Source: Arthrobacter sp. Bi26
Lineage (GTDB): Bacteria; Actinomycetota; Actinomycetes; Actinomycetales; Micrococcaceae
Direction: 5' to 3'
DNA length: 64,000 bases
Assembly: GCF_918697925.1 (NCBI RefSeq)
Contig: NZ_CAKKMF010000006.1
Location: 26,240 to 90,239, forward strand
A program made the position numbers and the translations under genes. Below, in pieces: positions 25,400 to 58,918 of the stretch. The notes under the pieces are model-generated. The model worked only from the letters and a program-made list of their open reading frames with translations. It was not told the DNA's origin and did no database searches. Within the stretch, counting starts at the first letter, position 1. The number at the start of each line of letters is the position of its first letter.

Positions 25400-26127
25400 C
25401 TGCGCCAACCCGACATCGCGGTGACCCGGAAGCTCAGGGTGTCGTCATTGGCGAGGCAGGCCTTGAGCATGGCTAGCCGTTGGTCCTTCTCAGTACTGGC
25501 ACGTTCTTGCATTGGCCGTGCCCGGCGCTCAAGAACCGCATCACCGATCGCGGGACTCCAGGAAACTTTGAGGGGAGCGGATGGGCCTTCCTATGGCGGG
25601 GCGTGATTGTGATGGCAGGAAGGACTAACCAGCGCTCGGAGCCGCTGGCGCGAGAGTAAAATGTTCCTTCAGATTTTGTTCGTTCAATTTTTGGTCGCGT
25701 TTGTAACCCTCGAACGATCGATCGCAAAGACATCGTTGTCGTGGAGCCATCTCTCACATTTCGGCTTCAAGCGACGTGATACTGGGTGGCAATGGGCGGA
25801 GGAGGAGTGATCGTGCATCGGATACAACAATCACTGTTCTACTTGACATAATGTTGATTATCGGCGTTGTATAATCAGTCGATAGGGGCTGAATTTCTAC
25901 CTAAACTAGTTGGTGGCAATCACCATGCAGCAGCGACGCTGACCTGGTTACCAACGCGAGCTTAGATCGGAGCCGCTGACAGAGATCTGGGCGCGTATGG
26001 CCGCCTGCTTCTGGATGGACTGCTCCGACACTGCAGAATTCGCCAAGTTTCCGCTCGTGCATCGGACGAATATGTCCGACACTAAGAGGCGCGCCTGCTC
26101 GTCTCCACCTGACTGCCTGCGCATGAT
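25400..26127. other. Long AT-richer intergenic region
   Basis: About 730 bases contain no convincing gene. The middle (roughly 25630-25920) is clearly AT-richer than the surroundings. It holds an inverted repeat with a TATAAT box, listed separately. This could be a remnant promoter region of deleted or foreign DNA. Confidence 0.5.
25843..25877 (+). promoter_or_regulatory. Promoter-like site with TGATTAT inverted repeat
   Basis: TTGACA (25843-25848) and TATAAT (25870-25875) are perfect consensus boxes but 21 bases apart, longer than ideal. TGATTAT (25855-25861) and ATAATCA (25871-25877) form a perfect 7-bp inverted repeat overlapping the -10 box, as expected for a repressor site. No gene follows until 26128. 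Confidence 0.4.
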
Positions 26128-43525: not shown

Positions 43526-44140
43526 TCAGCCTTCGTCGCAGAGCAGGTGGTACCAGTTGTCGGCGAGCACCTCGAGTGCGTGGTCGCGGTTTGGTTCAAA
43601 CTTCCGTCGTGTCCAGAGCGTGGCGACGTAGTCGAGCGAGGTGAACGCGAGAGTGCCGCGAATGTGGCGCGTCTCCTCCGAGAAGCGACTTGCCAGCTCC
43701 ATTCCGCGCACGAGATCGGAGATGACCTCCTCATGCCATCCCTCGACCAGGGCGCGCACCTCGCGATCAACGGCGGCTGCCTCCTCGAGCACGTCGAGGT
43801 ACGGGCGGAAGACTGGCCAGAGCGCCGCCCGCGACTCCAGCCAGGCCAGGATGCCCGGCAGCTCGCCTGCGCGCACGACGTCGACGAGCTCGGCCGCGGT
43901 CGATCCCCGTTCGGGGCCGTCCGCGCGGTCCAGCACAGCGTTGACGCGCGCCATGAAGTCCCGCATCAGGTCGCTGCGCGAGGGGTAGTAGGCGTAAAAA
44001 GTCACCCGGGTGGTTCCTGCCGCAGCGGCAATCTCATCGATCGTCGTCGCGGCGTAGCCCTTCTCGGTGAAGAGTTCAAGTGCCCGTTCGACGATCACGT
44101 CGCGGGTCAGCTGCTTCTGGGCCTCTCGCAACGACGACAT
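43526..44140 (-). CDS. TetR-family regulator (paralogue 1 of the catabolic island)
   Basis: The 204-residue protein has an N-terminal TetR helix-turn-helix (ALELFTEKGYAATTIDEIAA then GTTRVTFYAYYPSRSDLM) and a variable helical ligand domain. It closely resembles the TetR at 55784-56371 over the first 70 residues, including the unusual start LREAQKQ. It lies 28 bases behind the ferredoxin reductase on the same strand. It probably controls the divergent promoter near 48.7 kb. Confidence 0.86.
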   Translation of the reverse strand: MSSLREAQKQLTRDVIVERALELFTEKGYAATTIDEIAAAAGTTRVTFYAYYPSRSDLMRDFMARVNAVLDRADGPERGSTAAELVDVVRAGELPGILAWLESRAALWPVFRPYLDVLEEAAAVDREVRALVEGWHEEVISDLVRGMELASRFSEETRHIRGTLAFTSLDYVATLWTRRKFEPNRDHALEVLADNWYHLLCDEG

Positions 44141-44168
44141 GGATCAATCCTAACGGTGTTGTGCGGCG

Positions 44169-45413
44169 TCAGACACGAGCTGGCGCCGCCGGACGCACCG
44201 CGGCCGGACCGACGTCGGCCAGCCGGCGCAGTTTGGGGATGGGGATCCGGTAGTTGATCGCGACGGCGGTGCCTGAACCGTCCATGTTGTCCCAGCGCAG
44301 CAGCATCGAATCCGCACTCTCGCCGGGCTCGCAGAAATCGGGAGTCCCGACAACCGGCGCGAAGCCCACCGACTTGAGCGACAGGCCGAAGCCCTCTGTC
44401 CAGAAGTACGGCTGGAAGTCGAACTCGGGCGCCGCGTCACCCTTGAGCAGGCCGACGGCGGCGATCTTGGCCTGGTCGATGGCGCTGGTCCAGAGGGGCA
44501 CCCGTTCCACCCCTCGACGGGTCGGGAAGAACGCCACGTCGCCGGCGGCGACGATGTCCGGCCGGAGCCTGCCGCGCGAGTCGACACGCAGCTGCCCGTC
44601 GACGAGGAGGTTCGAGCCAGCCAGCCAGCCGATGTTTGGCTCGTCGCCGATAGCGGTGACCACAAGGTCCGCCTCCAGTTCGGTGCCGTCGGCAAGGACG
44701 ACTTTTGCCCCGGTACCGTGATCGAGAAGACGGGCCTTCCCACCGCCAACCACCCGCAGTCCGCGCCGGACGGCGGCGGAGGTGAAGATGTCGGCCAGAT
44801 GGTCGCCAAGCTGACGCGAGAGCGGCTTGACGTCGGAGACGAGGGTGACCTCGCAGCCCACGTGCAGGCAACCGGACGCGACCTCAACGCCGAGCGGTCC
44901 GCCGCCGACCACAATAACTGACGGGCGCGATGCGGCCAGCTCTTTGAGCAGGATCGCATCCTCGATGGTGCGCAGGGTGAGCTCCCGGAGGGAGCCGTCC
45001 TGTCGCGGTCCAGCTGCTCCTTGCCCCGGGGCGAGGCGCTTCGCCCGGGAACCGGAAGCGATGACGAGGCCGTCATACGGCAGCTCATCGCCCCCGTCCA
45101 GGCGAACCAGCCGGGCGTCAACGTCCAGGCCCGTGGCGCTGACTCCGAGCAGCTCGGTTGCTTCGTGGGTCGGCTCGGGGAGCACATGGGCCTGGAGTAC
45201 ATCGTCGCTTTTCCCATCGACGCTGTTCCCATCAACACTGTCCCCATCAACACTGTGCAGCAGCGCCTTGGAGAGGGCTGGCCGGCTGTAGGGATGGTGG
45301 CGCTCGGCGCCCACAACAGTGAGCTCACCATCGAAGCCGGCCGAGCGCAGCGAGTCGCAGGCCGTGAGCCCGGCGATGCCGTTGCCAACCACCACTATCC
45401 TGCGCATCGTCAT
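44169..45413 (-). CDS. Ferredoxin reductase of a P450 system
   Basis: The 414-residue flavoprotein has an FAD motif VVGNGIAGL at the N-terminus, an NAD(P)H motif VVGGGPLGVEVA near residue 160 and ATGDVAFF-like FAD contact VAAGDVAFFP near 290. This is the layout of putidaredoxin-reductase-type enzymes. It starts by ATGA overlap with the ferredoxin gene. An in-frame triple repeat SVDG[D/N/K] lies at about residues 53-67, in a surface loop by inference. Confidence 0.87.
   Translation of the reverse strand: MTMRRIVVVGNGIAGLTACDSLRSAGFDGELTVVGAERHHPYSRPALSKALLHSVDGDSVDGNSVDGKSDDVLQAHVLPEPTHEATELLGVSATGLDVDARLVRLDGGDELPYDGLVIASGSRAKRLAPGQGAAGPRQDGSLRELTLRTIEDAILLKELAASRPSVIVVGGGPLGVEVASGCLHVGCEVTLVSDVKPLSRQLGDHLADIFTSAAVRRGLRVVGGGKARLLDHGTGAKVVLADGTELEADLVVTAIGDEPNIGWLAGSNLLVDGQLRVDSRGRLRPDIVAAGDVAFFPTRRGVERVPLWTSAIDQAKIAAVGLLKGDAAPEFDFQPYFWTEGFGLSLKSVGFAPVVGTPDFCEPGESADSMLLRWDNMDGSGTAVAINYRIPIPKLRRLADVGPAAVRPAAPARV
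45211..45255 (-). repeat. Three 15-bp tandem repeats inside the ferredoxin reductase gene
   Basis: Three 15-base units (45211-45225, 45226-45240, 45241-45255) differ at a few positions and read TTCCCATCAACACTG on the plus strand in the middle copy. On the coding strand they give SVDGD, SVDGN and SVDGK. Confidence 0.8.
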
Positions 45414-45604
45414 GCCGCGGCCAACCGCAGCGCGGCAACCGGGCAGACCCTTACCGCCGCCTTCGCGGCGTCCAGGTCAGCCCCTTCCGCGTCCGGAACG
45501 TCGATTACCAGCTCGCCGTCGTCGTCGAGGTGCATCAGCCGGGGAGCGGCCTCTTCGCAGAGGCCGTGTCCCTCGCAGCGCGGCCGGTCGAGTTGGATCC
45601 TCAT
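45410..45604 (-). CDS. [3Fe-4S]-type ferredoxin
   Basis: This 64-residue protein has the cysteine pattern C10-x2-H13-x2-C16 ... C54-P. A His replaces the cysteine that would bind the fourth iron, which marks the [3Fe-4S] ferredoxins that serve actinobacterial P450s. It overlaps both the P450 stop and the reductase start by 4 bases, so the three electron-transfer parts are made together. Confidence 0.88.
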   Translation of the reverse strand: MRIQLDRPRCEGHGLCEEAAPRLMHLDDDGELVIDVPDAEGADLDAAKAAVRVCPVAALRLAAA

Positions 45605-46773
45605 GCTGCCACCACCTTGGTGACCTGGAGCAACTCGAGGCTCCGCGTGATGTTGCTCGGCTCCCGGACTTCATCGGAAATCGTCAGCGTTTTCACCCTG
45701 CGGGCAAGGGCCTCAATGATCGCATGGGCTTCAAGTTTCGCCAGGCCTTGGCCGGCGCAGCCGTGCGGTCCATAGCCGAAGGACAGGTGGTCCACCGGGT
45801 TGCGCATCACGTCGAAGGTGTCGGGATTCTCGTAGTGCCGCGGGTCCCGGTTGCCGGCGCCGAAGAGGATGCCCACCTGCGCCCCGGCAGGAATCGTGGC
45901 TCCGTCGATTTCCACGTCGCGGGTTGCCCTGCGGCCCCAGATGTGGACCGGTGCCCAGTAGCGCAGCACTTCGGCGAACGCCGCGGGGACGAGTTCCGGG
46001 TTCTCCCGGACCAGCCCGAACTGCCCGGGGTGGTGGCCGAACAGCGCAATGATGTTCCCGATTGACGCGATTGTCGTGTCGACGCCCGCTCCCAGGTACT
46101 GGTGGATGATGTGCCCCGCAGAGCCTTGGGGAATGTCGCCGCGTGTCTCGGCGTCGAAGATTCCGCGGCCGATTGAGCCGGGTGTGAGGTCGTCGGCGGT
46201 GACCGACGAGCACCAGCCGTAGAGCTCGCCGGCGATCGGGAAGCTCTCCTGCGTGCGCTGGTTCAGCGGGCCGATGACCTGCATCGCGGCCTGGCCCCAG
46301 CGCAGCATGTTGTCCTTGACGTGTCCGCTGAAGCCAATGAGGTCGGCAACGATTTCGATCGGGAAGGCCCGGGCCAGGGAGTCGATGGCCTCAAAGCTGC
46401 CGCTGGCGGCGAGCTCGGCGACGAGCTGGTCCGCCTTTTCGTCGATGACGACCTTCAGGCCGCGGAGTGCGCGGGGGGTGAGGTTCTGTGACAGCGTGGC
46501 CCGGAGCTGCGTGTGAATGGGCGGGTCGGAGGCAAGCGAGGTGCCCTGCAGCGCCTCGTTCACCATCGGGTTGAAGCCGATGCTGGTCGACGAGAAGGTC
46601 TCCGGATCACCGAGTGCGTCACGGATAACGTCGTAGCGCGTTAGGACGTACAGCTCGTTCTTGGGAAGGTGCACCACTGCGGCCTGCTCGCGGAGCGAGG
46701 CATACGTGGGGTAGGGGTCGACCAGGACGTCGTCGGCCCAGATGTCGATGCCGGATTCGGTGGGTGCAGTCAC
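45601..46773 (-). CDS. Cytochrome P450
   Basis: GTG 46773 follows AAGGAGAA. The 390-residue soluble P450 has the I-helix motif AGVDTT (229-234), ExxR as E268-R271, and the haem-binding FGYGPHGCAGQGLA with Cys339. All key residues are intact. Class I electron transfer is supplied by the two following genes. Bacterial P450s of this size hydroxylate, epoxidise or O-dealkylate small molecules; the substrate here is unknown. The exporter gene lies 60 bases upstream on the same strand. Confidence 0.9.
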   Translation of the reverse strand: MTAPTESGIDIWADDVLVDPYPTYASLREQAAVVHLPKNELYVLTRYDVIRDALGDPETFSSTSIGFNPMVNEALQGTSLASDPPIHTQLRATLSQNLTPRALRGLKVVIDEKADQLVAELAASGSFEAIDSLARAFPIEIVADLIGFSGHVKDNMLRWGQAAMQVIGPLNQRTQESFPIAGELYGWCSSVTADDLTPGSIGRGIFDAETRGDIPQGSAGHIIHQYLGAGVDTTIASIGNIIALFGHHPGQFGLVRENPELVPAAFAEVLRYWAPVHIWGRRATRDVEIDGATIPAGAQVGILFGAGNRDPRHYENPDTFDVMRNPVDHLSFGYGPHGCAGQGLAKLEAHAIIEALARRVKTLTISDEVREPSNITRSLELLQVTKVVAA

Positions 46774-46833
46774 GGTGTTCTCCTTGCGGATTGTGGGTTG
46801 TGGGTAGTGGGTAGTGACGTGTAGCCGTCAGTC

Positions 46834-48555
46834 TCAGACGGCCACTTCAGCGGTGGCCTCTGTCGTCTCTGCGATGGCGTCGGGGGTGGGCGCCGAAGAA
46901 CGAGCGGAGATGAAGAGGGTGAGGAGGGCGGAGGCTGTTGCCGCGATGGCAGCGACGAGGTAGACCGTTTGGAAGCCCTGGCCGAGCGAGGCTCCGGCCA
47001 CGCCCTGTATCTGCTGCTGCGCGGCGGTGAGGGCCTGAACCATGCCGTCGACAGCAGGGGCGGGCGCGCCCCCGGCCAGTGCCTGGCCGGAGAACTGGGC
47101 GATGACGCCGTCCCAGCCCGAGAGATAGCCCAGGGGCGGCACGTGGGAGAGCCCGGCGACTGCGTTGGCGGGCAGCCCCGCCCCGCCGAGGATCCCGCCG
47201 AGGGGGCCCGCGAAGGCTGAGGCGCCGATGCTGAACGCGATGGCCGAGCCGATGACCGGGCCAAGGGCGAAGCCAAGGTCCCGCAGCAGGTTCGTCGTCG
47301 CCGACGCCATGCCGATGTGCTGCGGCGGGACGGTGTTGATCGCCACGGAAGTGATGGAGCCAACTGTGAGCGCGAATCCGATGCCCAGCAGCAGAAGTGG
47401 CGGAATGAAGGCCGTCCACGGGGTACCGCCGAAGGCCTCCGGCGCGCCCAGGGAGAACGTCGAGAGCCAAAAGCCGGAGATGGCCATGAAGGCGAAGCCC
47501 GAGGTGAGCACCCAGCGCGGCGCTATGTGGTGGATGAGCCACCCCACCACGGGGATGAAGGCGAACGCGGGGCCCTGGATGAAGACGAACAGCACCCCGA
47601 CCTTCCAGGTCTCGGCCAGGGCAAGGCCGCCGACGGCGACGCTGGTGCTGAAGCAGATCGCGAGGAAGGCAAACATGCCGGTGACCGCGACGACGCCTGT
47701 GATCGAGTAGGCGCTGTTCTTGAACAGGGAAAGGTGGATGAGCGGCTGTTTGGTCCGCGTCTCGATGACGAGGAAGAGGACCAAAAGGATGCCGCCGATG
47801 ACGTAGCTAACGACGACATCCGAAGCGCCGAAGCCCGCATCGACCGCCTGAACCGTCGCAAAAAGCACGGCGATGAGGCCGAGCGCGAGGGTGAACTGGC
47901 CGGGCAGGTCGAGTTTGCGTCCCTCCGCGGCCGCGGAGTCCTTCGCCCGGAGCGCGACGATGAGAACGCCCACGGCGACGGCGGCCGCAACGAAGTAGGC
48001 GACACGCCAGCCGCTGAACACGTTCGGCGTGCCAGCCGCAGCGCCTGGCACGGTGAAGAACTGGGCCGTGAGGCCGGCGAGCAGGGGGGAGATCACCGCG
48101 CCGAGCGACAGGAACCCGGCCCAGGTGGCAATGACCCGGGCCCGCGCCCGGTGGTCCGGGGTGATCGCCGCGATCATGGACAGCGAAATGGGGAAGAGGA
48201 TGCCCGCCCCGATGCCGCCGACGGCCTGCGCGGTGATCATCATCTCGGTTGTCGGCGCCAGCGCAGCAAGGACGGAGCCGACGATGCTGACCCCGGCGCC
48301 GATGTACAGAAGCTTCTTGCGTCCGAACAGGTCACCCAGGAGCCCCCAGCTGAGCTCGAACACGACGATACCCATCAAGAACATGCCCGCGATCCAGGTC
48401 AGGCCCGCGCCCGAGGTATGGAATTCCGCGGCGAAGGTGCCGCTGAGGGCACCCGGCAGGGCGTTGGTGATCTGCGCGAGTGTGACCGCGCTGTAGGCGG
48501 CCACGAACGTCGCTCGTACTGAGCCTCGGCTCGACACCGTGGTGGTCTGACTCAT
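46834..48555 (-). CDS. MFS transporter, 14-segment DHA2-like
   Basis: Start is at ATG 48555 (MSQTTTVSSRGS), preceded by an AAGGAG site; codons further upstream run into the control region. The 573-residue protein has about fourteen membrane segments, loop motif GDLFGRKKLLYIGAG, and an extra-long region between the last segments (about residues 450-530) with Gly/Ala-rich sequence. It could import the island's substrate or export an intermediate. It is the first gene of the leftward arm. Confidence 0.85.
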   Translation of the reverse strand: MSQTTTVSSRGSVRATFVAAYSAVTLAQITNALPGALSGTFAAEFHTSGAGLTWIAGMFLMGIVVFELSWGLLGDLFGRKKLLYIGAGVSIVGSVLAALAPTTEMMITAQAVGGIGAGILFPISLSMIAAITPDHRARARVIATWAGFLSLGAVISPLLAGLTAQFFTVPGAAAGTPNVFSGWRVAYFVAAAVAVGVLIVALRAKDSAAAEGRKLDLPGQFTLALGLIAVLFATVQAVDAGFGASDVVVSYVIGGILLVLFLVIETRTKQPLIHLSLFKNSAYSITGVVAVTGMFAFLAICFSTSVAVGGLALAETWKVGVLFVFIQGPAFAFIPVVGWLIHHIAPRWVLTSGFAFMAISGFWLSTFSLGAPEAFGGTPWTAFIPPLLLLGIGFALTVGSITSVAINTVPPQHIGMASATTNLLRDLGFALGPVIGSAIAFSIGASAFAGPLGGILGGAGLPANAVAGLSHVPPLGYLSGWDGVIAQFSGQALAGGAPAPAVDGMVQALTAAQQQIQGVAGASLGQGFQTVYLVAAIAATASALLTLFISARSSAPTPDAIAETTEATAEVAV

Positions 48556-48674
48556 CGATGAAACTCCTTTGTTTCCGGTCGATTCTCCGGTGGTGCGCCG
48601 TTGCTGGTGCCCTACCGGGTAAGTGCCGGTAGGCCGGAGGTAGATGTGGCGCTCCCCACAGTGTGGTGCCAAGG

Positions 48675-48772
48675 TTTACATGATGTCAAGAGCACTTACG
48701 CAACGTTGGTTTCATAAGCACGCCGATGCTCAGCTGCCGTACGGCCTGCAAATTTCCTTGACATCATGTAAA
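48675..48772. promoter_or_regulatory. Divergent control region with perfect 16-bp inverted repeat
   Basis: TTTACATGATGTCAAG (48675-48690) and CTTGACATCATGTAAA (48757-48772) are exact reverse complements, 66 bases apart. Each arm is itself an imperfect palindrome (TTKACATSATGTMAA) and each contains a TTGACA -35-like box directed outward. The region lies between the divergent starts at 48555 (-) and 48872 (+). It looks like twin operators over two outward promoters. Confidence 0.7.
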
Positions 48773-48871
48773 GAAATATGTGAGGCTGACTGCACCGCAA
48801 GGGAGCGACGGCACGGTCGAACTCCGCGGCACCCCTGCATTGCAGCACTCGATCCTCAAGGGAGAAGCCAA

Positions 48872-49882
48872 GTGAGCCACACCACACCCGCCGATACCGG
48901 TGACGCGTTCCACGCCCCCGCCGGGCAAACCGTCAACACGGTCTTGGGTCCCGTCCCTGCCTCGGAACTGGGCGTTGTGGCGCTCCATGAGGCTTTGTTG
49001 TCGGTGGTCCCGGGCGCCCAGTACGCACCGGAGATCTCCATGGACCGGGCGGAGATCTTCCAGGCCCTGGCCGCGAAACTCGAGGACTTCCGCGGGCACG
49101 GCGGGAAGACGATCGTGGACAGCACCGGCATGTTCCACGGCCGCGACCTCAAGCTCTACGAGGCACTGTCCCGCTCCACCGGCGTCCACATCGTCGCCTC
49201 CACGGGCCTGGGCCCGGAGGAAGAACTCGGCGGATACTTCCTGACGCCCCAGACCAACCCGCCCACCCCGTGGCCGGCCGAAAAGTTCAGTGATCTCTTC
49301 GGCAAGGAGGTCAAGGAGGGGATGGTGGTTCCCCGGGTCGAGCGCCGCGCCGCCGCTGGCATCATCGCCACCACCGCCGACCGCGCCGGTATGACGCCGA
49401 CCGAGGAAAGCCTGTTTCGCGGCTCCGCCCGCGCTGCCAGGGACACCGGCGTCCCGGTCTCCATCCGCTTCGGCGCCGACGCCCTGCACGATCTGGACAT
49501 CGTCCTGGACGAGCAGATCGGGGCCGACCGGGTGCTCGTCGGCGGCCTCGACCGCAAGGACGGCGCCGGCTCCGCCATGGAAGTGGCCGGCCGGGGAGCC
49601 TTCGTCGGCATCGACCACGTGGGCCTGAACGACCATGCGGACTACCTCACCGACCACGATCGCGCCGAACTGGTGCTCGAGCTCGTCAAGGCAGGCCATG
49701 CCGAAAGGATCATCCTTTCGGGCAACTCGATCGGCGTGGCCAAGGGTCTGCCGGAGTACAACCTGCCCTACAGCCACGTCCTGACCACCTTCATGCCTTT
49801 CCTCAAGGCCCACGGCCTGGGCGAGGAAGACGCCCGGCGCATCCTCGTGGACAACCCGCGCAACCTGCTGACCGTGCGCTAA
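48872..49882 (+). CDS. Phosphotriesterase-family protein lacking the metal site (putative pseudoenzyme)
   Basis: GTG 48872 follows AAGGGAGAAG; the conserved part starts at residue 21. The 336-residue protein aligns along its length with its neighbour at 49933 (VNTVLGPVPASELGVVALHE, then VHIVASTGL). Of the family's six metal ligands only the first His survives (H39). The others are A41 for His, A166 for the carboxylated Lys, R199 for His, G225 for His and N285 for Asp. Hydrolysis by the usual mechanism is therefore unlikely. The reading frame is intact and codon use is normal, so it is probably kept by selection, perhaps as a partner, regulator or binder. Confidence 0.78.
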   Translation: MSHTTPADTGDAFHAPAGQTVNTVLGPVPASELGVVALHEALLSVVPGAQYAPEISMDRAEIFQALAAKLEDFRGHGGKTIVDSTGMFHGRDLKLYEALSRSTGVHIVASTGLGPEEELGGYFLTPQTNPPTPWPAEKFSDLFGKEVKEGMVVPRVERRAAAGIIATTADRAGMTPTEESLFRGSARAARDTGVPVSIRFGADALHDLDIVLDEQIGADRVLVGGLDRKDGAGSAMEVAGRGAFVGIDHVGLNDHADYLTDHDRAELVLELVKAGHAERIILSGNSIGVAKGLPEYNLPYSHVLTTFMPFLKAHGLGEEDARRILVDNPRNLLTVR

Positions 49883-49932
49883 GCACGCGGCGGCCCACAC
49901 ACAACAAGCTTTCGAACCCCGAGGTGAACGAA

Positions 49933-50886
49933 ATGACCAAAGTCAACACCGTGCTGGGAACCATCCCGGCCGAAGAACTGGAAATCGTGGCGGTCCACGA
50001 ACACATCGGCTACGGCATGCCCGGGTCCGAACTGGACACCAAGTGGTGGAAGTCTCCGGAGCAGGCCTACGAGGAAACCGTGCCGAAACTGCGGAAATTC
50101 CGCGAATACGGCGGCGGCACCTTCGTGGACGCCACGGGCATTTGCAACGGCCGCGACGTCGACTACTACAAGTCACTGTCCCGGAAGACGGGCGTGCACA
50201 TCGTGGCCTGCACCGGCTTCGTCGGCGGCGACACCGCCCTGCCGCACTTCTCCCGTGCCACCGTGGAGTACCTCACGAAGGTGTTCATCCACGAGATCAC
50301 CGTCGGCATCGGCACTACAGGCGCCAAGGCCGGCGTCATCAAGGTCGGTGTGAGCCGCGGCGGACGCATGACGGACCTGGACCAGCGGATCTACCGGGCC
50401 GCGGCCCGCGCCGCCGTCGTCACCGGCGCACCGGTCCTGACCCACCTGGCCATCGACCCCGAACCGGCGGTGAACATTTTCAACGAAGAGGGCCTCCCGC
50501 TGGACCGCGTGCTCTTTGGCCACGCCGACGACGGCCTGAACGCTCCGATCACTCCCCACGATTGGATCTACGAGCAGGGCGGCCGCATCGGCTTCGACAC
50601 CTTCGGCTACGACCTCGAACTGCCCGATCCGCCGTTCTGGGGCCGCAAGCGCGCCGAACGCATGGAGCACTTCGTCCACCTCGTGAACAAGGGCTATGCG
50701 GACAAGCTCCTGGTCTCGGCCGACGCAAATTGCAGCCCACTGGGCTGGCCGGGAGTGAAGGGCCACACCATCAACTACATCTTCGAGGACATGATCCCCG
50801 ACATGCGCGCAGCCGGAATCGACGACGCCACCCTCAAACTCCTGCTCGAGGACAACCCGGCCGACTTCCTGTCGCTTCACGCCTGA
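49933..50886 (+). CDS. Phosphotriesterase-family metal hydrolase/lactonase
   Basis: ATG 49933 lies 6 bases after GAGGTG. The 317-residue TIM-barrel hydrolase keeps all six expected ligands: H22 and H24 (VHEHIGYG), K137 (AGVIKVGVS), H171 (LTHLAID), H197 (FGHADDG) and D264 (VSADANCS). Relatives hydrolyse lactones, aryl esters or organophosphates with a binuclear metal centre. It follows its metal-less homologue by 50 bases. In this context a lactone or ester of an oxidised intermediate is the likely substrate. Confidence 0.85.
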   Translation: MTKVNTVLGTIPAEELEIVAVHEHIGYGMPGSELDTKWWKSPEQAYEETVPKLRKFREYGGGTFVDATGICNGRDVDYYKSLSRKTGVHIVACTGFVGGDTALPHFSRATVEYLTKVFIHEITVGIGTTGAKAGVIKVGVSRGGRMTDLDQRIYRAAARAAVVTGAPVLTHLAIDPEPAVNIFNEEGLPLDRVLFGHADDGLNAPITPHDWIYEQGGRIGFDTFGYDLELPDPPFWGRKRAERMEHFVHLVNKGYADKLLVSADANCSPLGWPGVKGHTINYIFEDMIPDMRAAGIDDATLKLLLEDNPADFLSLHA

Positions 50887-50958
50887 CCCCGGACAATCCA
50901 CCACACTCACCGTTCCCCAACACTTGGCCCGGGCCAAGCGTCAAGAAAGAGATGAACC

Positions 50959-52086
50959 ATGAAGGCTGAAGACATCAAGAACCTCAACATCGCCATCGTC
51001 GGCGCGGGGTACGGCGGCGCCGCGGCGGCCAAAGCCCTGAGCCTGCTCGGTGCCGACGTCAACGTGTACGAACAGGCTTCCCAGATGCGGGAGGTCGGCG
51101 CCGGCATCGGGCTGCGTCCCGCCACCATGCACCGGTTCAGCCAATGGGGCATCTTTGACGCGATCGCGAAAGTAAGCTCGCCGAGCGACTACTTCGAAAT
51201 CCTCACCGCCACGGGTGAGCCGATCATGAAGGACACCTGGCCGGAGTTCGGCGAGCAGACACAGACCCACCTCATCCACCGCGGCGACTTCATCGAGGCC
51301 CTGCTGGGCGTGCTGCCCGAGGGCATGGTGCACCTTGGCCACAAGCTGGAAACCATCGAGGACAAGGGCGGCCGCCCCGTCCTGACGTTCACCAACGGCA
51401 AGAGCGTCGAGGCCGACCTGGTGGTGGGCGCCGACGGCATCAAGTCCGTGGTGCGTGAGCAGCTCTTCAGCGACAAGGGTCCGGTGTTCTCGGGCGAACA
51501 CGCCTACCGCGCTGTGATCTCCGCCGACGACGCCCACGGCATGGTGGTGGACGACAACCTGCGGATGTACATGGGCAGGGGCACGAAGGTCTACCTGCTG
51601 CCGCTGCGTCACCGCAACCAGATGTCGTTCGATATCACCGCACTGTGCCCGGACAGCACCTGGGCCCCCACGATCACGAAGGACGACCTCGTGGCGACAG
51701 TGGAGGGCTTCGACGAGCGGATTGTCAACATTGCCCGCGGCCTCGACATGGACACCGTGAACATCCGCGCCGTCTACGACATAGACCCGGTTAGCTCGTG
51801 GCACACGGACTCCGTCGTGGTCATGGGCGATGCGGCCCACTCGATGCTGCACCACCAGGGCCAGGGCGCGAACTCGGCCATCGAGGACGCCGGCGCGCTC
51901 GCCGATGCCCTTGCGGGGGCTGGCTCCGTCAAGGAGGCACTGGCCCTGTTCCAGGCAACCCGCAAGCCGGTAACGGACGAGCTGCAGCGTATCTCCCGCC
52001 AGGGCTGGTCCGAGGACGAGGTCAATGACGTCTTCCCGGGGCAAAAACCCACGTCCCAGAAGCCCGCCGCCGCATCGAAAGCGTGA
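50959..52086 (+). CDS. FAD-dependent aromatic hydroxylase-like monooxygenase
   Basis: The 375-residue protein has the FAD motif GAGYGG near residue 15, DG motif VVGADGIKSVVRE near 155, and GD motif VVVMGDAAHSMLHHQGQG near 285. This is the p-hydroxybenzoate/salicylate/6-hydroxynicotinate hydroxylase class, which uses NAD(P)H and oxygen. It is a little short at the C-terminus and ends in a Lys/Ala-rich tail. The next gene overlaps its stop by GTGA. Confidence 0.86.
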   Translation: MKAEDIKNLNIAIVGAGYGGAAAAKALSLLGADVNVYEQASQMREVGAGIGLRPATMHRFSQWGIFDAIAKVSSPSDYFEILTATGEPIMKDTWPEFGEQTQTHLIHRGDFIEALLGVLPEGMVHLGHKLETIEDKGGRPVLTFTNGKSVEADLVVGADGIKSVVREQLFSDKGPVFSGEHAYRAVISADDAHGMVVDDNLRMYMGRGTKVYLLPLRHRNQMSFDITALCPDSTWAPTITKDDLVATVEGFDERIVNIARGLDMDTVNIRAVYDIDPVSSWHTDSVVVMGDAAHSMLHHQGQGANSAIEDAGALADALAGAGSVKEALALFQATRKPVTDELQRISRQGWSEDEVNDVFPGQKPTSQKPAAASKA

Positions 52087-53024
52087 ACGCCATGACCATC
52101 CATCCCGAAATCGCCAAAATCCTCGGCACCCTGCCGGCACCGGACGGGTCGCCGCTCAACCCGGCGGCTATGCGCGCCAGGGAGGCTTCGCAGGTGCTCC
52201 CTCTCGAGGACCGGCTGCCGTTGTTCCTTGTCGAGGACGCCACGGCAGTGACGGCGTCGGGCGAGGTGCCCGTGCGGATCTACACGCCTGCCGAGGCGGA
52301 CGCCTACGGCCTGCTGGTGTACTTCCACGGCGGCGCATTCTTCCTGGGCAGCCTGGACACCCACGACCACGTGGCACGGTCGCTGGCGAGGGAGACCGGC
52401 CACAAGGTCATCTCGGTCGGCTATCGCCTCGCCCCGGAGGCCGCGTTCCCGGCCGGCCTCGACGACTGCTACGGGGTGGTCCGGTGGGCCGCCGAGCAGG
52501 GTGCGAGCCTGGGCTGGGACGGGAAGAACCTGGCCATCGCCGGTGACAGCTCGGGTGGCAACTTCGTCGCGGCCGTCGCCGCGCAAGCACACGACGACGG
52601 GTTTGATCTCATCACGCACCAGGTCCTCTTCTACCCGTCCCTGGACCTGGACTTCGACGTCGACCGCTACGCCTCACTGCGGGAGAACGCTGAGGGGTAC
52701 GGGCTGGAGACGGCGGGCCTTTTGCCGTTCAACTCCTTCTACCTCGGGAACGGGGCGGATCCGTCGGATCCCCTCGTCTCCCCCATCAAGCGCGAGGATC
52801 TCGCCGGCCTGCCACCGGCCCTGGTCATCACCGCCGAGTACGATCCCCTGCGCGATGAGGGCGAACTCTACGGCCAGCGACTGACGGAGGCCGGCGTGGA
52901 CGCGACGGTCAGCCGTTACGCGGGGGCAAACCACGGCTTCGTCGCAAACTTTTCCTGGCTCCCGGAGTTCTACCGGGCGTTCGGTGAGACGGCCGCCTTC
53001 CTGGACGGGAACGCCGGGCAATGA
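52083..53024 (+). CDS. Alpha/beta hydrolase, HSL-type esterase
   Basis: The 313-residue enzyme has the oxyanion-hole motif HGGAF (82-86), nucleophile elbow GDSSG with Ser156, an acid in EYDPLRDEGELYG and a His in GANHGFVANF. These mark the hormone-sensitive-lipase family of carboxylesterases. GTG 52083 overlaps the preceding stop; an ATG three codons later is also possible. It probably cleaves an ester in the pathway. Confidence 0.87.
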   Translation: MNAMTIHPEIAKILGTLPAPDGSPLNPAAMRAREASQVLPLEDRLPLFLVEDATAVTASGEVPVRIYTPAEADAYGLLVYFHGGAFFLGSLDTHDHVARSLARETGHKVISVGYRLAPEAAFPAGLDDCYGVVRWAAEQGASLGWDGKNLAIAGDSSGGNFVAAVAAQAHDDGFDLITHQVLFYPSLDLDFDVDRYASLRENAEGYGLETAGLLPFNSFYLGNGADPSDPLVSPIKREDLAGLPPALVITAEYDPLRDEGELYGQRLTEAGVDATVSRYAGANHGFVANFSWLPEFYRAFGETAAFLDGNAGQ

Positions 53025-53989
53025 CGCCGGCAGTCGCTGTTCATCCCATCGTCTCGCCGTGGGGCCGGTTCGGTCTCTACAGCTTCTTCATCGACGCCCC
53101 GGAGCCCGCCATCGTGGACACTGGGATCGCATCCTCGCCCGCGGAAGGACTGGCGCCCGCGCTGGCGGCGATCGGCCGCCGGATCGAGGACGTCCGCTGG
53201 ATCCTGCTGACTCACGGGCATATCGACCACGTCGGCGGTGCCCACGCCCTGTGGGAACTCACCGGACGGCGCGCGCAGGTCGTTATCCACGAGGCCGACG
53301 CGCCGCTGCTGCGCTCGCGAAGGGCGCACGTGGACGAATACGTCGCCGGCCGGGCGCAGTACCTGCACGACCCTGACGGTGAATCGAGGCTGTCGGCCGC
53401 CGCGGACGCGGTTATCTCCGGCGAGATGGAACCGACGTTGTTGGTGCGGGGCGGAGAGAGAATCTCCCTCGGTGGTGACGTCACCGTTTCCGTTCACTCA
53501 ATCCCGGGACATACCCCCGGGTCGGTCGCCTATGTCATCGACGGGCAGGACGACGTGTTCGTCGGCGACGCCGTCCAGGTCCACGGCGCGGCCAACGGGT
53601 TCCCCGGTTTCGTGGACCCGGCCGGCTATCGCGCAGGCCTTCAGTACCTGCGTGAGGAGATCCGTCCGCAGCATCTCTACCTCGGGCACCCGTACCGCCG
53701 CGCGGACGGCACGCCGTATGGCGTCGAGCTCGACGCGGAACAGGCCAGGGAAGCGCTCCAGGCGAGCCAAGAGATCGAGGCCCGTGTCGGTGACGCGGCC
53801 TGCCGCTGCCTGGACGCCGGGCTGCAGGACACGGACTCGCCATACTCGCCCTTCGCCCGCGTTGCTGAAGAACTCGGCTACGCGGGGGACCCCAGCCTGG
53901 AGCCGTCCCCGTTCTTCACGACGCTCCACGGCTACCGCACAACCTTTGACCAAATGACCAAGCATGAGGAGCTACGCACCCATGGATGA
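53021..53989 (+). CDS. Metallo-beta-lactamase-fold hydrolase
   Basis: The 322-residue protein has the zinc motif THGHIDH (H65, H67, D69, H70), then IPGHTPGSVAYV and FVGDAVQVHG, which supply the remaining ligands. A C-terminal helical extension of about 90 residues is present. The fold includes lactonases, glyoxalase II and arylsulfatase-like enzymes. It is translationally coupled to the esterase (ATGA) and to the CocE-type gene, suggesting sequential hydrolytic steps. Confidence 0.86.
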   Translation: MTPAVAVHPIVSPWGRFGLYSFFIDAPEPAIVDTGIASSPAEGLAPALAAIGRRIEDVRWILLTHGHIDHVGGAHALWELTGRRAQVVIHEADAPLLRSRRAHVDEYVAGRAQYLHDPDGESRLSAAADAVISGEMEPTLLVRGGERISLGGDVTVSVHSIPGHTPGSVAYVIDGQDDVFVGDAVQVHGAANGFPGFVDPAGYRAGLQYLREEIRPQHLYLGHPYRRADGTPYGVELDAEQAREALQASQEIEARVGDAACRCLDAGLQDTDSPYSPFARVAEELGYAGDPSLEPSPFFTTLHGYRTTFDQMTKHEELRTHG

Positions 53990-55721
53990 CCTAAAGATGC
54001 TGGATGCCGGCGGGGAAAAGATTGCTGTCCGCAAGGATCTCCGGGTCCCGATGCGGGACGGCGTCGAGCTCGCCGCGGACGCCTATCACGGTACTGAGGA
54101 CAAGCCGCGGCCCGCCCTGGTGGCACTGAGCCCCTACGGCAAGGAGCTGCAGGCGCTGGCCCTCACCACCCCGCCGCAGCGGCGCCCCAGCCCCATGTGG
54201 GACGGCTGCATCGAGGCCGGGGACATCGCCCGCATCGTCAAGGAGGACTACGTCCACGTCATCGGCGACCTGCGCGGCTCCGGCCACTCCGGCGGCGAGC
54301 ACATCGGCAATTACAACGCCGGCGGCGTCTCCCTGGGCCAGGACGCGTACGACTTCATCGAATGGGTCGCCGAGCAGCCGTGGTGCGACGGCAACGTCGG
54401 CATGGTCGGCATCTCCTACTTCGGCTCCATGCAGGTGCTGGCCGCGGCCGAGCGCCCGCCGCACCTGAAGGCGATCTTCGTCTCCGGCGGCCACTACGAC
54501 TTTTACGAGACCACCTACCACGGCGGCGTCATGTGGTTCATGCCGCGCGCCGCCCGCGAGGGCCGCGGCGGCGACTCCGGCTGGGCGTTCACCGACGGCG
54601 TGAAGTCCCGCATGATCGAGAAGTACTCCCCCGATGAACTGAAGAAGCTGGTCCAGGAGCGGCTGCAGGATCCGGACGTGGCCGCCTGGCCGAACCTGGT
54701 CCATGTCCTGAACTACCCGAAGAATCATGAGGTCTGGTTCGACATCGTGATGAACGAGCTGGACGGGGACTGGTACGAGGAGCGCAACCCCGTCTCGCTG
54801 GCCCCGAACATCGACATCCCGGTCTGGCTGCAGCTCGACCAGGGCCGCGGCTGGACCTTGGATGGCACGATCGAGCTGTTCAATAAGCTGAAGGGCCCCA
54901 AGAAGCTGGACATCGGTCCCTACCCGCCGATGCAGTCGCGTCCCTTTATCGAGGAGCACGACAAGATGTTCCGGTGGTACGACTACTGGATCAAGGGCAT
55001 CGACAACGGCGTCATGGACGAACCGGCCGTGAGCGTCTTTGTGGAGGGTTCCCGGGAGGTGGTGACCGCCGAGGCGTGGCCGCCGAAGGACATCGAGTAC
55101 AAGTCCCTCTATCTGCGCCCGCGCCACACGCTGTCCGAACAGCCCGAGCCGATGGGGGCGGAGTACGCCGCCCCGGACGGCTTCTACCAGGCGCCGCTGA
55201 CGGTGACGGACAAGGTGGAGATCATCAGCTGGTCCACCCCTGTCTTCGAGGAGGACACGGAGATGATCGGCGCCGGTGCCGCGCACATCTTCGCCGAGAT
55301 CGACCAGCCGGACACCAACTTCATCCTGCGCCTGTGGGACTACGCTCCCAACGGCCCGCGCCAGCTGATCACCAGCGGCTACCTGAAGGCCTCGCACCGC
55401 GAACTCGACGAGCGAACCACCGAGGGCAACCCGTACCACGCGCACACCCGTTCCGTGCCGGTGGAGCCGGGGACGATCGAGGAGTACGTGCTGCGCCTCT
55501 ATCCGTTCGCGAACACGTTCAAGCCGGGGCACAAGCTGACGGTGGAACTGTCCAACGGCGAGCCGCTGGCCGACGAGCACAATGCGCTGCTGCCGCCGGA
55601 TGCCTTCCACCTGCCCGTGGGCCGGCCCGTCACCCATAAGATCTACCGCGACGCCGCCCACCAGTCCAGGCTGGTCCTGCCGTTCACCACACGCAAGGCG
55701 GCGGAAGACCAGGGGCACTGA
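53982..55721 (+). CDS. CocE/NonD-family hydrolase (S15 type)
   Basis: ATG 53982 overlaps the preceding stop and lies 10 bases after GAGGAG; an in-frame ATG at 53964 is less well placed. The 579-residue enzyme begins with the family motif RVPMRDGVELAAD, has DLRGSGHSGG near residue 97 and the nucleophile GISYFGS with Ser145. A beta-rich galactose-binding-like C-terminal domain starts near residue 370. CocE-type enzymes hydrolyse esters such as cocaine and NonD a macrotetrolide. No signal peptide is present. Confidence 0.86.
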   Translation: MDDLKMLDAGGEKIAVRKDLRVPMRDGVELAADAYHGTEDKPRPALVALSPYGKELQALALTTPPQRRPSPMWDGCIEAGDIARIVKEDYVHVIGDLRGSGHSGGEHIGNYNAGGVSLGQDAYDFIEWVAEQPWCDGNVGMVGISYFGSMQVLAAAERPPHLKAIFVSGGHYDFYETTYHGGVMWFMPRAAREGRGGDSGWAFTDGVKSRMIEKYSPDELKKLVQERLQDPDVAAWPNLVHVLNYPKNHEVWFDIVMNELDGDWYEERNPVSLAPNIDIPVWLQLDQGRGWTLDGTIELFNKLKGPKKLDIGPYPPMQSRPFIEEHDKMFRWYDYWIKGIDNGVMDEPAVSVFVEGSREVVTAEAWPPKDIEYKSLYLRPRHTLSEQPEPMGAEYAAPDGFYQAPLTVTDKVEIISWSTPVFEEDTEMIGAGAAHIFAEIDQPDTNFILRLWDYAPNGPRQLITSGYLKASHRELDERTTEGNPYHAHTRSVPVEPGTIEEYVLRLYPFANTFKPGHKLTVELSNGEPLADEHNALLPPDAFHLPVGRPVTHKIYRDAAHQSRLVLPFTTRKAAEDQGH

Positions 55722-55783: not shown

Positions 55784-56371
55784 TCACTCAGCCAGCAGGA
55801 AGCACCAGTTCTCGACCATCAGATCCAGAGAAGTGTCGCGGTCTACGGTCCAACCGAGCCGCATCCAGCGCCGGGAAAAGAACTCCAGTTCTCCGAAGGC
55901 CAGCGTGCACCGGACACGGCGGCTGGGTGGGTCAAAACGCCCGGCCCGGTCCAGGCCGGCCTGCATGTCATCGATTGCCAGGTCGAACCACTGATCCAAA
56001 GCGGCCTGGATGTCCGGTTCGCTGGCCGCGGCCTGGTGCGCCGCCACCACATAGGGACGGATGTCGGCCCATTGGTCAAATTTCCGTGCAAGCCAGACCC
56101 TGATCAGCTTGCGGTCCCCGGATTCCACCACCGAATGCAGCGGCGGCACATCGGCATCGGTCAGTATCTCGTTGGACCGCTCGACGAGCGAGCGCATGAG
56201 CTGGGCCTTGGACGGAAAATGCGAATAGAAGGTTGCCCTGGTGGTGCCTACGGCAGCGGCAATGTCATCCACCGTGGTGGCGGCGAACCCCTTTTCCTCG
56301 AAAAGCTCCAGCCCCTTCTCGAGAAAAAGTCGGCGGGTCATCTGCTTTTGAGCTTCTCGAATGCTTGCCAC
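55784..56371 (-). CDS. TetR-family regulator (paralogue 2 of the catabolic island)
   Basis: The 195-residue protein opens IREAQKQMTRRLFLEKGLEL and has the helix-turn-helix GTTRATFYSHFPSKAQLM. It is clearly similar in its first 70 residues to the TetR at 43526-44140. The ligand domains are more different, so the two may sense different molecules yet bind related DNA. It converges on the rightward arm and is separated from it by a terminator. Confidence 0.86.
   Translation of the reverse strand: MASIREAQKQMTRRLFLEKGLELFEEKGFAATTVDDIAAAVGTTRATFYSHFPSKAQLMRSLVERSNEILTDADVPPLHSVVESGDRKLIRVWLARKFDQWADIRPYVVAAHQAAASEPDIQAALDQWFDLAIDDMQAGLDRAGRFDPPSRRVRCTLAFGELEFFSRRWMRLGWTVDRDTSLDLMVENWCFLLAE

Positions 56372-56527: not shown

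Positions 56528-58918
<2,391 letters not shown>

What the first reader, a model, noticed from the sequence alone, without database searches (positions are those of the whole stretch)
48872..50886. Intact phosphotriesterase paired with a metal-less paralogue
Seen: the two neighbouring proteins align along their whole length, but the first has A41, A166, R199, G225 and N285 where the second has His, carboxylated Lys, His, His and Asp. Only one of six ligands (H39) remains. The dead copy is full length, in frame, first in the operon and has normal codon use. Known: phosphotriesterases are usually homodimers. Inference: a selected pseudoenzyme that may form a heterodimer with, regulate, or deliver substrate to the active copy.
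Basis: partly seen in the sequence, partly recalled or inferred. Interest (0 to 1): 0.8.

Follow-up and report, generated by a model that had tools for sequence, protein, structure and literature searches.

The report
Inseparable dead twin of a metal-enzyme
Soil bacteria such as Arthrobacter carry, next to an intact enzyme of the phosphotriesterase family, a full-length sister protein that has lost the metal-binding residues yet is kept by selection; it probably works as a non-catalytic partner subunit of that enzyme, which has not been tested.

Summary
The first gene (48872-49882) is a full-length phosphotriesterase-fold protein that keeps one of six metal ligands; its neighbour (ATG 49933-50886) keeps all six. 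Of 291 aligned relatives of the dead copy none keeps more than one ligand (170 keep one, 121 none); 169 of 169 partners keep six; of 50 other family rows 48 keep six, two keep five. Where I could look the pair is inseparable: 36 of 36 actinobacterial genomes with the partner have the dead copy directly upstream, and a Caballeronia plasmid carries both, overlapping by 4 bases, in a similar catabolic block. The dead copy is under purifying selection (median dN/dS 0.16; partner 0.06). Invariant positions sit in barrel-mouth loops 1-3 (34 of 52), not in loops 4-8 (10 of 49; p = 7e-6); the partner shows no such asymmetry (35 of 44, 34 of 46). In related lactonases the dimer-interface residues named in papers map to loops 1-3 and 8. 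Best reading: a dedicated non-catalytic subunit that docks loops 1-3 on the active partner. Complex and substrate are untested; a metal-free new enzyme or a binding protein remain possible.

The parts
48872..49882 (+). psPTE: metal-less phosphotriesterase-fold protein (P0001, 336 aa), first gene of the operon
48986..48994 (+). former beta-1 HxH ligand motif, now H39-E40-A41
49367..49369 (+). former carboxylated Lys codon, now A166 (A, T, V, C, S or R in relatives)
49466..49468 (+). former beta-5 His codon, now R199 (R in 281 of 291 rows; 110 of 120 Caballeronia-type)
49544..49546 (+). former beta-6 His codon, now G225 (mostly D or G in relatives)
49724..49726 (+). former beta-8 Asp codon, now N285 (mostly N in Arthrobacter-type, mostly S in Caballeronia-type)
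48992..49045 (+). psPTE barrel-mouth loop 1 (residues 41-58, PGAQYAP); 7 of 18 positions invariant
   Evidence: dN/dS 0.03 for residues 42-59
49121..49147 (+). psPTE loop 2 (residues 84-92, GMFHGRD); 7 of 9 invariant
   Evidence: dN/dS 0.01 for residues 84-101
49202..49276 (+). psPTE loop 3 (residues 111-135, TGxGPEEELGGYFLTPQTNPPTPWP); 20 of 25 invariant; likely docking loop
   Evidence: dN/dS 0.03 for residues 112-139; low pLDDT 114-129
49319..49360 (+). psPTE alpha3-beta4 segment (residues 150-163, GMVVPRxERR) with residues the partner lacks; 10 of 14 invariant
49933..50886 (+). active-type partner PTE (P0002); all six metal ligands; start refined to ATG (open frame from GTG 49924)
   Evidence: dN/dS 0.06
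50959..52086 (+). FAD-dependent monooxygenase; best solved relatives 6-hydroxynicotinate 3-monooxygenase, tropone 2-monooxygenase
52083..53024 (+). alpha/beta hydrolase (Abhydrolase_3)
53021..53989 (+). MBL-fold hydrolase
53964..55721 (+). CocE/NonD family hydrolase
55784..56371 (-). TetR-type regulator 2
46834..48555 (-). MFS transporter, first gene of the divergent operon
   Evidence: conserved in relatives
45601..46773 (-). cytochrome P450, best solved relative CYP199 (264 bits)
45410..45604 (-). ferredoxin, 64 aa
44169..45413 (-). ferredoxin reductase
43526..44140 (-). TetR-type regulator 1
   Evidence: a relative also stands next to the P450 in Caballeronia
48675..48690 (+). operator-like site TTTACATGATGTCAAG in the divergent promoter region
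48757..48772 (-). second, inverted copy of the operator-like site

Best explanation
The first gene encodes a phosphotriesterase-fold pseudoenzyme whose metal site is lost in every relative aligned and which likely serves as a dedicated non-catalytic subunit of the intact paralogue encoded just downstream. SHOWN: the two genes occur side by side in every genome where the partner was found, and selection holds the dead copy's barrel-mouth loops 1-3 almost fixed while the parts that carried most of the ligands drift. INFERRED: the two proteins form a heteromer through the surface that related lactonases use for homodimers. Loop 3 of the dead copy (GGYFLTPQTNPPTPWP) would pack against loop 8 of the active copy (ADANCSPLGWPGVKGH) beside its binuclear metal site, and so stabilise or shape that pocket. 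ALSO INFERRED: the enzyme hydrolyses an ester or lactone intermediate in an operator-controlled, probably aromatic, catabolic pathway.
For: Ligands: 170 of 291 psPTEs keep one and 121 of 291 keep none; 169 of 169 partners keep six (rows come from capped lists, see full report). Control: 48 of 50 other PTE-family rows keep six, two keep five. Pairing: 29 of 29 family genomes in both directions and 7 of 7 further genomes with a partner; 23 of 23 named loci found with the dead copy; Caballeronia plasmid with a 4-base overlap. Selection: median dN/dS 0.159 for psPTE, 0.064 for the partner, 210 comparisons each. Where it acts: loops 1-3 34/52 invariant against loops 4-8 10/49, p = 7e-6, also within each of the two psPTE types (40/52 and 18/49, p = 5e-5; 35/52 and 16/49, p = 7e-4); partner 35/44 against 34/46, p = 0.62; partner loop 8 16/19, psPTE loop 8 3/18. 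SsoPox and SisLac are homodimers; Q34 and W263 lie in the interface, W263 contacts F104 of the other chain, and an interface groove is lined by V27, L72, Y97, I98 and W263 (passages of PMC3468530, PMC3781021, PMC7084321). Mapped through the alignment, Y97, I98 and F104 fall on psPTE G114, P115 and G121, each 291 of 291. The conserved loops are modelled with low confidence alone, as would fit loops ordered by a partner. Tree: psPTE and partner are two clades (support 1.0 each), together separated from 50 other rows (0.96).
Against: No complex was predicted or measured; the structure tool takes one chain. Loops 1-3 also shape the pocket, so their conservation could equally mean a new binding or active site. 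Mapped landmarks are not uniformly conserved in psPTE: V27 -> S or Y and L72 -> H, Q, E or N vary. The partner's own loop 3 is also conserved (12 of 17), though in this model it would face the relaxed loop 8 of psPTE. The invariant alpha3-beta4 segment PRxERR lies, by TIM-barrel topology, towards the opposite face and is not explained by this dock. Low pLDDT can come from a shallow alignment (80 rows); it also covers the unconserved 1-17 and 287-291, and the partner too has low-confidence loops. Adjacency alone can reflect a shared pathway: neighbouring genes are conserved too.
Confidence: 0.47

Rival explanations
1. psPTE is a re-purposed, metal-independent enzyme that catalyses another step of the same pathway with a new set of residues in the barrel mouth; the pairing only reflects a shared pathway.
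For: Loops 1-3 at the barrel mouth are nearly invariant and hold fixed polar residues (Q127, N129); more stand in the alpha3-beta4 segment (R155, E157, R158, R159). R199 replaces a ligand in 281 of 291 rows and H249 is dead-copy specific in 287 of 291. A metal-free lactonase exists in the amidohydrolase superfamily (LigI, recalled, no call).
Against: R199 becomes Q, K, S or A in 10 of 120 Caballeronia-type rows, unusual for a catalytic residue. The beta-8 acid that is the general base in this superfamily (recalled) is N, S, G or C in all 291 rows. Old ligand positions drift.
Confidence: 0.23
2. psPTE is a binding protein: it holds a pathway intermediate or docks to another protein (for example the monooxygenase, through the PRxERR patch) without being part of the partner enzyme.
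For: The alpha3-beta4 segment, 10 of 14 positions invariant, includes residues the partner lacks and, by topology, lies away from the mapped dimer face. Loop regions are fixed while the catalytic positions drift.
Against: It occurs with the partner in 36 of 36 genomes and directly upstream of it. Other cluster genes vary more: the monooxygenase falls to 50-60% identity to the window's in 11 of the 28 family loci L004-L031, where the partner keeps 74% or more (loci hold only part of the monooxygenase).
Confidence: 0.16
3. The dead copy is a decaying relic or a sequencing or assembly artefact.
For: It evolves faster than its partner (median dN 0.073 against 0.020); in G104 it lies in two frames; its first 20 residues are weakly constrained (dN/dS 0.74).
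Against: Median dN/dS 0.159 and at most 0.29 in 210 comparisons; 289 distinct sequences; no row in two phyla with a restored site. In L053 the neighbouring genes are in pieces as well.
Confidence: 0.03

Closest known systems
Phosphotriesterase-like lactonases and phosphotriesterases (Pfam PTE PF02126)
   Different: Five of six metal ligands lost here, all six in 121 of 291 relatives; 27-29% identity to the solved members listed; pairing with an active paralogue in every genome found.
Inactive dihydroorotase-like subunit of bacterial aspartate transcarbamoylase (recalled, no call)
   Same: A metal-less amidohydrolase-superfamily protein kept as a structural subunit beside an active enzyme.
   Different: There the partner is an unrelated transcarbamoylase; here it is a paralogue of the same fold.
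Enzyme-pseudoenzyme paralogue pairs such as trypanosome AdoMet decarboxylase and its prozyme (recalled, no call)
   Same: A dead paralogue kept beside a live one; there it activates the enzyme by forming a heterodimer.
   Different: Different fold and kingdom; here complex and activation are untested.
LigI, metal-independent lactonase of the amidohydrolase superfamily (recalled, no call)
   Same: No divalent metal site expected.
   Different: LigI keeps the beta-8 Asp as base (recalled); psPTE has N, S, G or C there in all 291 rows.

Membership tests
Pfam PTE family PF02126 (sequence family) | Profile match over the curated cut-off | tested here: met
   138.9 bits against 22.4, residues 30-333
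Pfam PTE family PF02126 (sequence family) | (beta/alpha)8 barrel fold of the family | tested here: met
Phosphotriesterase / phosphotriesterase-like lactonase (active enzyme), psPTE | Six ligands of the binuclear metal site (HxH, carboxylated K, H, H, D) | tested here: not met
   1 of 6 in the window copy; 0 or 1 of 6 in 291 of 291 aligned relatives
Phosphotriesterase / phosphotriesterase-like lactonase (active enzyme), partner | Six ligands of the binuclear metal site | tested here: met
   169 of 169 partner rows
NCBIfam organophosphate hydrolase OPH (partner) | Equivalog cut-off, 500 bits | tested here: not met
   111.5 bits
Phosphotriesterase-like homodimer | Dimer through the loop 1, 3 and 8 face | not testable with these tools
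   only one chain per structure job; conservation pattern only
LigI-type metal-independent hydrolase | Beta-8 Asp as general base (recalled) | tested here: not met
   position 285 is N, S, G or C in all 291 rows
Pseudoenzyme subunit of a paralogous enzyme | Catalytic residues lost and the protein kept by selection | tested here: met
Pseudoenzyme subunit of a paralogous enzyme | Co-inherited with the active paralogue | tested here: met
   36 of 36 genomes adjacent
Pseudoenzyme subunit of a paralogous enzyme | Physical complex that changes enzyme activity | not testable with these tools
   needs co-expression or a two-chain model

The most novel reading that the evidence does not exclude
An obligate alpha-beta phosphotriesterase-type enzyme: the dead subunit lends its invariant loop 3 to the live subunit's pocket, so the working site lies at a hetero-interface and the pseudoenzyme sets substrate specificity. 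This would be the first such enzyme-pseudoenzyme pair that I know of in this fold family, old enough to be shared by Actinomycetota and Pseudomonadota.
Probability: 0.28. Interest if true: 0.78.

Novelty: new variant of a known kind. Interest (0 to 1): 0.62.

Why it matters
Phosphotriesterases and their lactonase relatives are much used in enzyme evolution and bioremediation and are described as homodimers whose dimer face touches the active site; PMC3468530 says that the biological importance of dimerization remains unclear (passage seen). A natural pair in which one half is catalytically dead would allow that question to be tested by removing or swapping the dead half. It also warns annotators: members of the dead family are listed under names such as phosphotriesterase, aryldialkylphosphatase and phosphotriesterase-related protein (one is a hypothetical protein), although the metal site is absent.

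Tried and rejected
Rebuilt metal site: I listed every psPTE position that is at least 95% H, C, D or E (21 positions). Ten of the 21 hold the same main residue in the partner; only H249 is a new His and no Cys is conserved. Rejected as far as sequence shows; no geometry was checked.

Relic: rejected by dN/dS and by the absence of any restored site.

Substrate: Pfam, NCBIfam and PDB comparisons of the neighbours gave P450 (CYP199-like), flavin monooxygenase and three hydrolases. Paper searches for the cluster gave one and twelve listed papers, not opened, none with such a cluster in title or abstract start. The substrate stays unknown.

In-print check: 'phosphotriesterase' with 'pseudoenzyme' gave 0 papers; 'amidohydrolase' with 'pseudoenzyme' and 'metal-binding residues' gave 0; two searches listed four papers each. 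I saw titles and abstract starts only (and passages of PMC4323659), which show no such pair. The library holds open-licence PMC papers only. One search, for the dihydroorotase analogy, listed one review, not opened.

Inter-protein coevolution was not run: 53 loci with both genes are too few. I could not test Kluyvera or Paracoccus, where only the partner is named.

Mended on checking: my first count of partner loops used columns where the partner has gaps (loop 3 12 of 25); without gaps it is 12 of 17.

Full report
WHAT IS THERE. The window holds a GTG-started gene at 48872-49882 (336 codons) and a second at 49924/49933-50886. Both match Pfam PTE over most of their length (138.9 and 168.1 bits, cut-off 22.4) and align to each other at 34% identity. 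They are the only two PF02126 places found in the genome. The second protein has the six metal ligands of the family. The first has H39, A41, A166, R199, G225 and N285 there: one of six. I move the partner's start to ATG 49933: relatives L040 and L028 have a stop within the stretch aligned to the first three codons.

THE LOSS IS CLADE-WIDE, NOT AN ACCIDENT. I aligned 291 relatives of the dead copy: the query, the best 120 of 2145 hits (Arthrobacter-type), the best 120 of 2099 hits (Caballeronia-type), and 50 from genome and plasmid loci, some of which repeat genes of the lists; 289 sequences are distinct. The remaining hits of those two searches were not shown to me. 170 rows keep one canonical ligand, 121 keep none, no row keeps two. 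In the Caballeronia-type rows the first His is also gone (S, G, C, A or R; one gap). 169 of 169 partner rows (best 120 of 927 hits, the window's, and 48 loci) keep all six. As a control for the columns I took the other PTE-family genes from the phylum and class searches: of 53 loci three were dropped (L064, L078, L089; short or in pieces), and of the 50 rows left, three of which repeat a gene (G331, G654, G685), 48 read HHKHHD and two HHGHHD. L031 and L053 (both genes) and the partners of L040 and L028 were left out of the per-locus sets.

THE PAIR IS INSEPARABLE WHERE I COULD LOOK. In 295 genomes of the family, 29 have a partner (74% identity or more) and the same 29 have the dead copy (57% or more), adjacent and on the same strand; in G104 the dead copy lies in two frames. 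In 396 genomes of the phylum only G000 and G343 have the dead copy (567 and 525 bits; the next best match, 137 bits, is G343's partner), both with a partner. Searching 394 genomes of the class and 396 of the order with the partner profile added G748, G808, G892, G1210, G1265 and G1347, and each has the dead copy directly upstream. The four searches overlap in genomes. In total 36 of 36 partner-bearing genomes carry the pair. Most genomes, also within the genus, have neither. Those 23 were found with the dead copy as query, so they say nothing about partner-only genomes.

ACROSS PHYLA. Caballeronia insecticola plasmid p2 carries TetR, P450, ferredoxin, ferredoxin reductase, dead copy, partner, FAD monooxygenase, alpha/beta hydrolase, MBL hydrolase, CocE hydrolase and an MFS transporter; dead copy and partner overlap by 4 bases. 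The window holds the same kinds of gene around the pair, with the P450 half on the other strand. Identities to the window are 58% (dead copy) and 69% (partner); its MFS transporter showed no match to the window's. FastTree places 64 dead copies and 64 partners in two clades (support 1.0 each) which together are separated from the 50 other rows (0.96). The outgroup is actinobacterial only. I read this as one old duplication that travels as a unit.

SELECTION, AND WHERE IT ACTS. Among the window and 20 of the 23 named loci (L040, L053, L056 left out) the median dN/dS is 0.159 for the dead copy and 0.064 for the partner (210 comparisons each). Within the dead copy it is 0.01-0.03 in residues 42-59, 84-101, 112-139 and 150-160, 0.14-0.23 in residues 161-336 and 0.74 in the first 20; residues 21-41, 60-83, 102-111 and 140-149 were not computed apart. 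Of the barrel-mouth loops, 34 of 52 positions in loops 1-3 are invariant (97% or more) against 10 of 49 in loops 4-8 (Fisher p = 7e-6). The contrast holds inside each of the two types (H39 type, 170 rows: 40 of 52 and 18 of 49, p = 5e-5; the other, 121 rows: 35 of 52 and 16 of 49, p = 7e-4). For the partner, gap columns left out, the numbers are 35 of 44 and 34 of 46 (p = 0.62). Neighbouring positions and related sequences are not independent, so the p-values are a guide only. 52 positions are invariant in the dead copy and different in the partner.

MECHANISM. In a homodimer of this type loop 3 of one chain meets loop 8 of the other. The dead copy has loop 3 frozen (20 of 25) but loop 8 free (3 of 18), while the partner's loop 8 is frozen (16 of 19). 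The simplest reading is that the dead copy's loop 3 meets the partner's loop 8, not its own, so that the working unit is a heteromer with one metal site. This is inference: the partner's loop 8 would be conserved for catalysis in any case, its loop 3 is conserved too (12 of 17), and no complex was modelled or measured. The PRxERR segment is not explained by it.

CONTEXT. Two inverted copies of TTTACATGATGTCAAG lie between the MFS transporter and the dead copy (48675 and 48757). With up to 3 mismatches the window has 4 matches (0.04 expected): these two, the second one in its palindromic register, and one at 25842. Similar sites with up to 2 mismatches occur in 22 of the 23 named loci (none in L044) and, once, upstream of the Caballeronia P450. 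So the dead copy is likely the first gene of an induced operon under a TetR-type regulator (inferred). The neighbours suggest catabolism of an aromatic ester or lactone (inferred); the substrate is unknown.

VERDICT. Observation confirmed. Selected pseudoenzyme: strongly supported. Non-catalytic subunit of its paralogue: most likely, untested. No published account turned up in the searches, which cover open-licence papers only and of which I saw listings.

Noticed in passing
48675-48690 (+) and 48757-48772 (-): Two inverted copies of TTTACATGATGTCAAG, 82 bases apart, in the divergent promoter region between the MFS transporter and psPTE; similar sites (up to 2 mismatches) in 22 of 23 related loci (not L044) and before the Caballeronia P450: likely operators of the TetR-type regulator.
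   Followed up: partly
49319-49360: Dead-copy-specific PRxERR segment between helix 3 and strand 4, nearly invariant and basic, with no counterpart for part of it in the partner; not explained by the dimer-face hypothesis.
   Followed up: partly
43526-55721: A catabolic island (TetR, ferredoxin reductase, ferredoxin, P450, MFS, psPTE, PTE, flavin monooxygenase, alpha/beta hydrolase, MBL, CocE) largely shared with a Caballeronia plasmid (58-74% identity for psPTE, PTE, flavin monooxygenase, alpha/beta hydrolase, MBL, CocE and P450; 48-52% for TetR and ferredoxin reductase; ferredoxin not compared, no match for the MFS); substrate unknown.
   Followed up: partly
56528-58918 (-): UvrA-like ABC ATPase without obvious pathway link, next to the cluster and also there in L034, L036, L039, L041 and L055.
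   Followed up: no
L053 4455-16785: In Arthrobacter sp. Hiyo8 several genes of the cluster are split over frames, which looks like sequence error rather than decay.
   Followed up: no
L031 1471-2459: In genome G104 the dead copy lies in two frames while the partner is whole; the one candidate for a broken psPTE among the 29 family genomes.
   Followed up: no
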